From positions 124,001-188,000 of the forward strand of contig VGRF01000005.1 of assembly GCA_016875395.1 (NCBI GenBank): DNA of 64,000 nucleotides. Reading direction: 5' to 3'. The first letter of the stretch is position 1, and each line of letters begins with the position of its first letter. This document shows positions 54,130-57,143 of the stretch, piece by piece. This stretch comes from Deltaproteobacteria bacterium (GTDB taxonomy: Bacteria; Myxococcota_A; UBA9160; UBA6930). Below the pieces are notes generated by a model, which was given only the letters and a program-made list of their open reading frames with translations, was not told where the DNA came from and did no database searches. Made by a program: the position numbers and the translations under genes.

Positions 54130-55479
54130 TTATGGGTTCGTCACAACTGGAATGTCCGCGAGCGGTCGCTTCGCGAGGTTCGCGACCATCGGCCAGAGCA
54201 CGAGGCGCGCTTCGCCCACGCGCGCCAGCCACGCGAGCCACGCGGCGTCTTCGCTCGCGGGTGCGGCGGCAGTGAGCGCGTCGACTGCGAGGCGCCCTTC
54301 CGTGAGCGAGGTCGGCGCGCGGCCCGACCGCTCGCGCAGCGCCTCGCGCTCCGCAGCGTTCGCGGTCTCGCCGAAGCGCGCGAGCGCGGCGGCGTGCATC
54401 GCGAGCAGCAACGCGCCCCGCGCGCGGCGCTGCGCCTCGCCCGTGAGCGCGGGCATGAGCACCGTCGCGATGTCGCTCACGAGTGCGTCCATCGCTTCCG
54501 CGCTGTCGCGATCACTCGCAGCAGGCGCCGGCGCGAACGCCGGCAGCGCGATGCCCGCGAGCTGCGCGAGTGCGCGAGGGAGCAGCGCGTCGACGAGTGC
54601 GATGAGTGAGAAGTACACCGAGCGGTCGAGGGACTTCGCGCCGTTGTCGAGCGCCGCGAGACACGAGACGAGCCAGCGCAGCATCACGAAGGCGCGGTAG
54701 TAGGCGACGCGCGCAGGACTCACCGGCCACCCGGTGCGCGAGGACCAGCGCGCGAGCTGCGCGCCGAGATCGCCGATGTCGGCCTGCATGTGATGGCCGC
54801 GGAAGGCGAGCCAGCCGAGATCGTCCATCGGGTCGCCGACGTGCGCGAACTCCCAGTCGAGCAGGGCCGTCACGCGCGCGCCGTCGTGGAGGAAGTTGCC
54901 GGGGCCCACGTCCCCGTGACACAGGACGGTGTCGCTCGCTTCGGGCGCATTGCGCTCCAGCCACGCGAACGCGAAGCGCGCGAGCGGCGCCGGCCGCTTC
55001 ACGCGCGACTCGAAGATGCGACGCCAGAGCGCAAGCTCGTTCAGGGCGTGATCTCGTGGCGCACGCGGGCGCGCGAAGCCCGGCAGCTCGAGCTTCCGGG
55101 CATCGACGAGGTGCAGCTCGGCGAGCGACTCGGCGAAATCCAGCATCAGCGCCGCGCGCTGCTCGGAGCTGAGCGCATCGAGCTCGGGCGAGCCGCCCGC
55201 GCGCTCGACGAGCAGCGCATCGTCGCGCGATGCGATCAGCGCCGGGATGCGCACGCGCGCGCCGCGCAGCGCGCGATACGCCGCGGCTTCGCGCGCGAGC
55301 GAGAGCTCCGTGCCCGCGACGGGGCCGTCGCCCGTGTCGAGGCGCAGCACGACCTCCCGCTGCGCGGTGCGCACGAGCCACGTCGCGCGCGAAGCGCCGG
55401 CGCCGACGCGCTCCGTGCTCGCGAGCGGCGCGCGCAGCTCGGCCTCGATCCACGCTCGCAGCTCGTCGGGCAGCGACAT
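54130..55479 (-). CDS. Aminoglycoside phosphotransferase-fold protein (ACAD10-like kinase)
   Basis: 449 residues. N-lobe VGAGASRATWLVRTAQREVVLRLD with nucleotide-binding Gly loop and the Lys/Arg strand, LAREAAAYRALR; catalytic loop DTVLCHGDVGPGNFLHDG with HGD and Asn, then metal-binding VTALLDWEFAHVGDPMDDLGWL. This is the APH/choline-kinase fold. Relatives fused or next to acyl-CoA dehydrogenases phosphorylate hydroxyacyl compounds, so a lipid-type substrate is possible. The C-terminal 150 residues are helical and Ala-rich. ATG 55479. Transcribed away from the histone-fold gene. Confidence 0.85.
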   Translation of the reverse strand: MSLPDELRAWIEAELRAPLASTERVGAGASRATWLVRTAQREVVLRLDTGDGPVAGTELSLAREAAAYRALRGARVRIPALIASRDDALLVERAGGSPELDALSSEQRAALMLDFAESLAELHLVDARKLELPGFARPRAPRDHALNELALWRRIFESRVKRPAPLARFAFAWLERNAPEASDTVLCHGDVGPGNFLHDGARVTALLDWEFAHVGDPMDDLGWLAFRGHHMQADIGDLGAQLARWSSRTGWPVSPARVAYYRAFVMLRWLVSCLAALDNGAKSLDRSVYFSLIALVDALLPRALAQLAGIALPAFAPAPAASDRDSAEAMDALVSDIATVLMPALTGEAQRRARGALLLAMHAAALARFGETANAAEREALRERSGRAPTSLTEGRLAVDALTAAAPASEDAAWLAWLARVGEARLVLWPMVANLAKRPLADIPVVTNP

Positions 55480-55565
55480 CGCTCGGCACGATAGATGCGA
55501 GCGCGTGCGGCTTGCGACTCACGCGCGCTGCGCGGCACCGTGCTCGCCTTCGACAGGAGAGACGC

Positions 55566-56042
55566 GTGACCGAGGCCGCACACTGGCGCCGCTGCAGCGC
55601 ATGCAAAACGTCGATCGCGCTCGGGGCGATTCATCAGGTGTGCAGCGTTTCCACGTGCAATCGCCCGCGCACGGGCCTCGTGTTCTGTTCCGTGAGTTGT
55701 TGGGAGGTGCACCTCCCCGACGCCAATCACCGAGAGGCGTGGGCGGTCGAGAAGCGCGCGCCTGCATCGCTCGATCCGGACGCGAACGCGTCGCCCGGCG
55801 GGCAGCGCCGCCTCGTGCGGCCCGCCGCTGCGGCGCCCGCGAAGCCCGCGGCGCCGGAGGAAGTGCTGATCATCGCGAGCCGCCTCAAGGACTACGTGCG
55901 CGCGAAGGCGGGGTACAACACGAGCGACAAGGTGCTCGAGCCGCTCTCGGAGATCGTGCGCCGCGTGTGCGATCAGGCGATCGAGAACGCGCGCCGCGAC
56001 GGCCGCATGACGGTGCTCGATCGCGACATTCCCGAGGTGTGA
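55566..56042 (+). CDS. Zinc-finger plus histone-fold DNA-binding protein
   Basis: 158 residues. The N-terminus has six Cys in pairs (C10/C13, C26/C31, C41/C45: CSACK, VCSVSTC, FCSVSC) plus His residues, which fits a two-zinc module. A Pro/Ala linker (about 58-95) leads to a C-terminal histone-fold segment: VLIIASRLKDYVRAK (helix 1), AGYNTSDKVLEPLSEIVRR and VCDQAIENARRDG (helix 2), RMTVLDRDIPEV, matching the GRxTV..xDI of archaeal histones; helix 3 is cut short. Bacterial histones with N-terminal zinc modules (called ZZ histones) are a described class. GTG 55566 has AGGAGAG before it. Chromatin role is inference. Confidence 0.8.
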   Translation: MTEAAHWRRCSACKTSIALGAIHQVCSVSTCNRPRTGLVFCSVSCWEVHLPDANHREAWAVEKRAPASLDPDANASPGGQRRLVRPAAAAPAKPAAPEEVLIIASRLKDYVRAKAGYNTSDKVLEPLSEIVRRVCDQAIENARRDGRMTVLDRDIPEV

Positions 56043-56102: not shown

Positions 56103-57143
56103 ATGCCCGTCGAGGTTGCCGGCGCCACGAAGAGGATCGGACTCGCGCTCTCCGGGGGCGGCTTTCGCGCGGCTGCGTTCCATCTGGGCGTGTTCCGAAG
56201 GCTGCTCGCGCTCGGCCTGCTCTGGAAGCTGGATCGCCTCAGCTGCGTGAGCGGGGGCAGCATCGCCGGCGCATTCCTCGCCCTTCACTGGGGCGACGCC
56301 GCGGCTCTCGACGAGCTCGACGAGTTTCTCGCGTCCGAGTCGCTCGCAGGGAAGGCGTTCTTCTTCGGGCTGTTCGATCCACTTGATTCGCGGCTCGACA
56401 AGCTCGCCGGCATGTACGACGCGCATCTGTTCCGCAAGGCGAGACTCGGAGCGCTTCGCGCCGGGCCGACGCTTCACCTCAACGCGACGAACCTCGCCAC
56501 CGGTAATCGCTTCGCCTTCGTGTGCGGGGCGAACCGCGATTCGGTGATGGGCGATCACGAGACCGGCTACGCAGCAGCCGACGACTTCTCGCTGGCGCGC
56601 GCCGTCGCGGCCTCGTCCGCGTTCCCCCCGGTATTCGCACCGATGAAGATCAAGCACGACGTGTTCTCGAATGCGGGTTTCGAGTTCGTCTCGCTCACGG
56701 ATGGCGGCGTTTACGACAACCTCGGCGTCAACCCGTTGTTGCGATGGGGAACCAGGAGCGAAGAGGAGAAAGCCAAGGATCTCGACTACGCGATCGTGAG
56801 CGATGCCGGGAAGCCGTTCGACCTGGACGAGACGCCGACGCGCTTCGGCTCGAAGACGGTGTTCAAGTCGATCGACATCCTGATGGAACAGGTGCGCGGG
56901 ATGCAGTTCAGCCGGCTACGCCTGCAGCACGCGGCGAACGGAAGGCCGCAGCCGATGTGGTTTTCGATCGACAGCAACGTGGACCCGAGCAAGAAGGCAC
57001 ATGACGCCGACGCGATTGCGGCCTCCAAGATCAAGACCAACTTGAAGAAGCTCTCGGACGCGGATCGAGCCTTGCTTGCGCGCCACGGCGGCAACCTCGT
57101 CGAAGCGCGCATTCGCGCATGGGCGCCTGATCTCATCCGCTGA
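56103..57143 (+). CDS. Patatin-like phospholipase
   Basis: 346 residues. Oxyanion loop LALSGGGFRAAAFHLGV, nucleophile Ser in SCVSGGSIAGAFLA (GxSxG-type elbow), catalytic Asp in SLTDGGVYDNLG. AASSAFPPVFAPMKI is the usual patatin segment. It hydrolyses acyl esters of lipids by a Ser-Asp dyad. No signal peptide, so it acts inside unless exported by other means. The start ATG 56103 has GAGAGG upstream. It follows the histone-fold gene by 60 bp. Confidence 0.9.
   Translation: MPVEVAGATKRIGLALSGGGFRAAAFHLGVFRRLLALGLLWKLDRLSCVSGGSIAGAFLALHWGDAAALDELDEFLASESLAGKAFFFGLFDPLDSRLDKLAGMYDAHLFRKARLGALRAGPTLHLNATNLATGNRFAFVCGANRDSVMGDHETGYAAADDFSLARAVAASSAFPPVFAPMKIKHDVFSNAGFEFVSLTDGGVYDNLGVNPLLRWGTRSEEEKAKDLDYAIVSDAGKPFDLDETPTRFGSKTVFKSIDILMEQVRGMQFSRLRLQHAANGRPQPMWFSIDSNVDPSKKAHDADAIAASKIKTNLKKLSDADRALLARHGGNLVEARIRAWAPDLIR

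What the first reader, a model, noticed from the sequence alone, without database searches (positions are those of the whole stretch)
55566..56042. Bacterial histone-fold protein with an N-terminal zinc module
The C-terminal 60 residues carry the histone-fold pattern of archaeal histones (LKDYVRAKAGYNTSD, helix 2, then RMTVLDRDI), including the Arg-Thr pair before the last helix, which is cut short. Six paired Cys near the N-terminus suggest a double zinc site. Histones with zinc modules have been described in bacteria but are little studied.
Basis: partly seen in the sequence, partly recalled or inferred. Interest (0 to 1): 0.75.

Follow-up and report, generated by a model that had tools for sequence, protein, structure and literature searches.

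The report
Bacterial zinc-finger ("ZZ") histone protein
This gene encodes a real bacterial histone-fold protein with a two-zinc module at its front end. It belongs to the recently named but functionally untested "ZZ histones", and its zinc module also turns up alone, without any histone, in related bacteria, which gives a new way to find out what it does.

Summary
Window 55566-56042 (GTG start, 158 aa) encodes a C-terminal histone fold (residues 98-155) that matches the solved Bdellovibrio histone HBb (E 5e-9; family profile 1.7e-17; Foldseek top hits). The N-terminal module has eight zinc ligands, C10/C13/C41/C45 and C26/C31/H49/H55, invariant in 100 homologous modules. Architecture and ligand spacing are those of the "ZZ histones" named by Schwab et al. 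2024 (PMC11390915): a new member of a known, functionally uncharacterised family. HBb's DNA-contact residues are largely kept (8 of 10 here), so non-specific DNA bending by a dimer is the likely activity.

Three further results:
- The same zinc module exists as a free-standing 60-100 aa protein in 18 genomes of the phylum, most in a conserved locus with rimO, coaX and tlpA-like genes. Eight of the 18 have no detectable α3 histone, so the module works without the histone.
- The disordered linker carries a conserved basic motif, RRx[IVL][IVLA].
- Two lineages fuse the module to two tandem histone folds.

Sequence does not support a strict "ZZ" (PF00569) assignment; the module looks like a ZZ/MYND/HIT-type cross-brace finger. 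Its function and partner remain untested.

The parts
55566..56042 (+). ZZ-histone gene, 158 aa, GTG start, stop TGA at 56040-56042
   Evidence: homologues
55555..55559 (+). AGGAG ribosome-binding site, 6 nt before the GTG
   Evidence: read directly from the sequence
55584..55745 (+). N-terminal cross-brace zinc module (residues 7-60): C10, C13, C41, C45 (C4 site) and C26, C31, H49, H55 (C2H2 site); basic loop N32-F40 with near-invariant R35
   Evidence: invariant ligands in 100 modules; AF2 model; spacing as in D0LYE7. Pairing of ligands into two sites follows PMC11390915
55761..55856 (+). Low-complexity Pro/Ala linker (residues 66-97), predicted disordered
   Evidence: pLDDT about 50 in residues 71-100
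55806..55820 (+). Conserved basic linker motif RRLVR (residues 81-85)
   Evidence: RRx?[IVL][IVLA] in 51 of 67 held-out linkers against a mean of 2.1 in shuffles
55857..56030 (+). alpha3 (bacterial-dimer type) histone fold, residues 98-155, helices 102-115, 121-144 and a short third; RxTxxxxD at R147-D154

Best explanation
This is a ZZ histone: a DNA-binding histone-fold dimer of the HBb type that carries on each subunit a two-zinc cross-brace module on a flexible basic linker. Shown here: the domain content, the invariant zinc ligands, the retained DNA-contact and dimer residues, and the independent existence of the zinc module. Inferred: the histone dimer binds and bends DNA through backbone contacts without sequence preference, as HBb does. 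Also inferred: the zinc module, through its conserved basic loop (N32-x-x-R35) and invariant surface, docks a conserved cellular partner (protein or nucleic acid) and brings it to bent DNA. I therefore expect a low-abundance accessory or regulatory chromatin protein working beside HU/IHF, not the bulk genome packager. Confidence is about 0.95 for the identity, 0.75 for DNA binding as a dimer, and 0.4 for the docking role of the zinc module.
For: Histone fold. HBb contacts kept in this protein: S105, R106, K108, R112, N118, S120, T149, R153 (changed: A104, M148). Across 82 homologues the R51/T53/R57/D58 equivalents are 100% and K12 and S9 at least 94%, against the contact list of PMC11317129. 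Architecture and ligand spacing as in ZZ histones of PMC11390915. Module autonomy: standalone copies, eight in genomes without a detectable alpha3 histone. Loop 32-40 has net charge +1 to +4 in every module. Two HU/IHF-family loci are also present, so this is not the only architectural protein. Low expression of the B. bacteriovorus member is reported in PMC11390915.
Against: No dimer was modelled, and no DNA-binding or zinc measurement was found for this protein or for any ZZ histone in the papers read. K52 of HBb, a DNA contact, is Met here. The zinc module's partner is a guess: flanking genes of the fused gene are not conserved. A purely structural zinc module would fit the fused forms, though less well the standalone ones. 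One review states that deletion of bd3044, probably the ZZ histone of B. bacteriovorus, is lethal, which would suggest more than an accessory role there.
Confidence: 0.6

Rival explanations
1. The zinc module is itself a nucleic-acid-binding element. The basic loop and the linker motif RRLVR contact DNA, so the protein is simply a higher-affinity or bridging DNA-bending histone with no protein partner.
For: Loop 32-40 is always net positive; standalone modules are strongly basic (mean net +6.8 over residues 10-60). The linker basic motif is conserved.
Against: Cross-brace ZZ/MYND-type fingers are mostly protein-interaction domains (established knowledge). The fused modules are only mildly basic (+3.0).
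Confidence: 0.3
2. The zinc module reads tails of other histones, as eukaryotic ZZ domains read H3.
For: Foldseek places p62/BIG ZZ domains at the top; the authors of PMC11390915 raised this idea.
Against: No second alpha3 histone was detected in this genome. Standalone modules occur in genomes without a detectable alpha3 histone. The loop is basic, while holding a basic tail would call for an acidic pocket. The same authors thought it unlikely and report that the pocket residues are not conserved.
Confidence: 0.06
3. The histone domain is a heterodimerisation or assembly unit, TAF- or NF-Y-like, and not a DNA binder.
For: Low reported abundance of the B. bacteriovorus member; histone folds have been co-opted for other roles elsewhere (PMC11390915 discussion).
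Against: DNA-contact residues are conserved across 82 homologues. No partner histone is detectable in this genome.
Confidence: 0.12
4. Chance ORF or mis-called gene in high-GC DNA.
For: High-GC DNA is full of open frames.
Against: Conserved at 37-67% identity over the full length in 13 independent loci, with matches in 60 of 72 genomes of the class.
Confidence: 0.001

Closest known systems
ZZ histones (Schwab et al. 2024, PMC11390915; example D0LYE7 of Haliangium ochraceum)
   Same: N-terminal double-zinc module (C4 + C2H2), C-terminal bacterial-dimer-like alpha3 histone fold; seven of eight ligand positions coincide in their profile numbering (10, 13, 26, 31, 41, 49, 55).
   Different: The paper prints the eighth ligand as C53 (profile C43); in all 100 modules here it is four residues after C41 (C45), so either the print or that protein differs (not tested). 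The K52 equivalent of HBb is Met here.
HBb / Bd0055, Bdellovibrio bacteriovorus (PDB 8CMP, 8FVX, 9EZZ, 9F0E; PMC11317129, PMC10627809)
   Same: Histone fold with a one-turn third helix, RxTxxxxD, DNA-contact and dimer residues; top sequence and fold match.
   Different: HBb has no zinc module or linker and is an abundant nucleoid protein.
Face-to-face alpha3 histones such as HLp (PDB 9QT0)
   Same: alpha3 histone fold, next sequence match after HBb (E 0.001; profile 2e-9).
   Different: HLp is a DNA-wrapping tetramer (PMC12701072); no zinc module.
Eukaryotic ZZ, MYND and HIT cross-brace zinc fingers (p62, DEAF1, ZNHIT3)
   Same: Two interleaved zinc sites in ligand order 1-2-5-6 / 3-4-7-8; first half resembles ZZ, second half (FCSxxCWxxH) resembles HIT/MYND.
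   Different: No significant sequence match to any of them; longer basic loop between ligands 4 and 5; the last ligand is His, where MYND and HIT have Cys.

Membership tests
ZZ histone (PMC11390915) | N-terminal module with a C4 and a C2H2 zinc site | tested here: met
   C10/C13/C41/C45 and C26/C31/H49/H55, invariant in 100 modules; zinc itself not measured
ZZ histone (PMC11390915) | C-terminal bacterial-dimer-like alpha3 histone fold | tested here: met
   HBb is the best match by sequence and fold
ZZ histone (PMC11390915) | RxTxxxxD motif in the histone domain | tested here: met
   R147-M-T149-VLDR-D154; R, T and D equivalents 82/82
Bacterial-dimer histone (HBb-like) | Forms dimers and bends DNA | not testable with these tools
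   No multimer prediction or assay; dimer-interface positions L127, V131, V134 are hydrophobic
Bacterial-dimer histone (HBb-like) | Single-domain histone without added domains | tested here: not met
   Zinc module and linker present, so it is filed as a ZZ histone
ZZ-type zinc finger, Pfam PF00569 | Match to the ZZ sequence profile | tested here: not met
   No PF00569 match in 14 members at E up to 10 nor in 4 standalone proteins
ZZ-type zinc finger, Pfam PF00569 | ZZ-like three-dimensional fold | tested here: inconclusive
   Foldseek top hits are p62 ZZ (prob 0.91, E 0.16), followed by BIG ZZ and MYND domains
MYND / HIT zinc finger | Match to MYND or HIT profile | tested here: inconclusive
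   zf-MYND E 0.027 for one standalone protein, zf-HIT E 1.5 for members; all below cut-off
Archaeal nucleosomal histone | Full-length third helix and a profile match above cut-off | tested here: not met
   NCBIfam archaea_histone 21.9 bits against cut-off 50; third helix is very short

The most novel reading that the evidence does not exclude
The zinc module is an independent, ancient bacterial protein family with its own conserved partner. Fusing it to one (or two) histone folds creates a targeted DNA-bending adaptor, so ZZ histones are recruiters, not genome packagers, and the standalone proteins do the same docking without DNA.
Probability: 0.35. Interest if true: 0.65.

Novelty: new member of a known kind. 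Interest (0 to 1): 0.42.

Why it matters
Histones in bacteria are a young field, and no ZZ histone has a tested function in the papers found. Showing that the zinc module lives alone in genomes without a detectable α3 histone makes it possible to study the module's partner apart from DNA packaging. It also argues against the idea that the module exists to read other histones. The broad conservation in this class (60 of 72 genomes with a match) makes it a core chromatin-associated gene of these lineages.

Tried and rejected
Conserved gene neighbourhood of the fused gene: none found in 33 loci (some from the same genomes); the patatin, SDR and AMP-ligase genes downstream are not shared. Viral contigs: no relative. 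A second histone in the same genome: none at the sensitivity used; the E 0.037 hit on contig C26 did not recur with the profile. Assignment of the zinc module to one known finger class by Pfam, PDB sequence, Foldseek and hhalign: inconclusive. Promoter/terminator scan: nothing.

Full report
WHAT IS THERE. The ORF at 55566-56042 (+) starts with GTG, has AGGAG six bases upstream and encodes 158 aa. It lies between a divergent APH-family phosphotransferase gene (54130-55479, -) and a patatin-like phospholipase gene (56103-57143, +).

HISTONE DOMAIN. A plain phmmer search of the PDB hits Bdellovibrio histone HBb (8cmp, 8fvx) over residues 99-155 at E 5e-9, then Leptospira HLp (E 0.001). A profile of 14 relatives raises this to 1.7e-17, followed by HLp and the archaeal histones HTkC and HmvA. 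The NCBIfam archaeal-histone model matches at E 1.7e-4 but below its cut-off. The AlphaFold2 model (mean pLDDT 80; histone helices 102-115 and 121-144, then a very short third helix) has HBb at ranks 1-5 in Foldseek.

DNA CONTACTS. Of the ten residues that PMC11317129 lists as HBb's important DNA contacts, eight are kept identically or as Arg for Lys (S105, R106, K108, R112, N118, S120, T149, R153); T8 is Ala and K52 is Met. Across 82 fused homologues the equivalents of R51, T53, R57 and D58 are unchanged in all, K12 in 80 and S9 in 77. Position 52 is Lys in 53, Arg in 14 and Met in 7, so Met is a minority state. DNA binding is therefore inferred with fair confidence; it has not been measured.

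ZINC MODULE. Six Cys and two His (C10, C13, C26, C31, C41, C45, H49, H55) are invariant in 82 fused and 18 standalone modules. The module models confidently alone (mean pLDDT 87). The spacing fits the 'ZZ histone' description of PMC11390915: D0LYE7 C20, C23, C36, C41, C51, H59 and H65 are each exactly ten higher than here. Their printed C53 would be C55 by the spacing seen here. By Foldseek the best matches are ZZ domains (p62 prob 0.91 but E 0.16), then MYND domains. By sequence no Pfam ZZ match exists; weak sub-threshold matches are to zf-HIT, zf-FCS, zf-MYND and DUF7576. I read it as a ZZ/MYND/HIT-type cross-brace finger whose exact class is unsettled. The loop between ligands 4 and 5 is always net basic and holds a near-invariant R/K35, unlike the acidic pocket of eukaryotic ZZ readers (the latter from general knowledge).

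THE MODULE ALONE. Searching 285 genomes of the phylum with the module profile found modules that end in a stop codon directly after the domain in 18 genomes. Eight of those 18 genomes had no α3-histone match in a dedicated search; assemblies are incomplete, so single absences could be gaps. In a tree of 100 modules the standalone forms need two origins: 15 in one well-supported group (100/97), and three (family f47) nested among fused forms, as expected if their histone part was lost. Few columns make the tree coarse. Many members of the first group share a conserved neighbourhood whose genes I recognise from sequence as rimO, coaX and a TlpA-like thioredoxin (not checked against a profile library). 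A standalone protein is 39-62% identical to the other modules, fused and standalone.

LINKER AND DOUBLETS. The disordered linker carries RRx?[IVL][IVLA] in 51 of 67 linkers not used to define it, against a mean of 2.1 (maximum 8 in 500 rounds) in shuffled linkers. Related sequences are included, so this is not a formal probability. Two loci, L131 and L139, encode the module followed by two histone folds in one frame.

DISTRIBUTION. 60 of 72 genomes of the class and 117 of 285 of the phylum have a match; some of these matches are histone-only or module-only. Named relatives are labelled Myxococcota/Deltaproteobacteria and a few Bdellovibrionota. This genome has one histone gene and two HU/IHF-family loci.

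HOW IT MOST LIKELY WORKS. An HBb-like dimer bends DNA; the zinc module on its basic tether docks something. The standalone copies imply that the module has a job without the histone, so reading other histones is unlikely to be its main role. The reported low expression of the Bdellovibrio member points to an accessory protein. The partner is unknown and the docking step is inference.

LITERATURE. The term ZZ histone occurs in two papers of the library searched. One review states that deletion of bd3044, the second Bdellovibrio histone gene, is lethal (PMC11318664), while the passages read of the primary paper report deletion attempts only for bd0055 (PMC10627809). That Bd3044 is the ZZ histone of that strain is my inference from the two-histone count.

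Noticed in passing
L082-L099 (18 genomes): Free-standing 60-100 aa proteins consisting only of the same eight-ligand zinc module; the four scanned match no Pfam or NCBIfam family above cut-off. Eight of these genomes have no detectable alpha3 histone.
   Followed up: yes
L085, L087, L089, L090, L091, L093-L099: Standalone zinc-module genes sit in a conserved locus with genes resembling rimO, coaX, a TlpA-like thioredoxin and an uncharacterised protein.
   Followed up: partly
L131 and L139: Zinc module fused to two tandem alpha3 histone folds in one frame, apparent ZZ-histone doublets.
   Followed up: partly
Family f4 genomes, e.g. G035 C38:174601-174801: A second, short histone-only gene beside the ZZ histone in the genome, not found in the window's genome.
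   Followed up: no
window 55806-55820: Short conserved basic motif RRLVR inside the otherwise poorly conserved disordered linker.
   Followed up: partly
PMC11390915, Fig. 4 legend: The eighth zinc ligand is printed as C53 (profile C43), whereas all modules here have it four residues after the first Cys of the pair; possible misprint.
   Followed up: no
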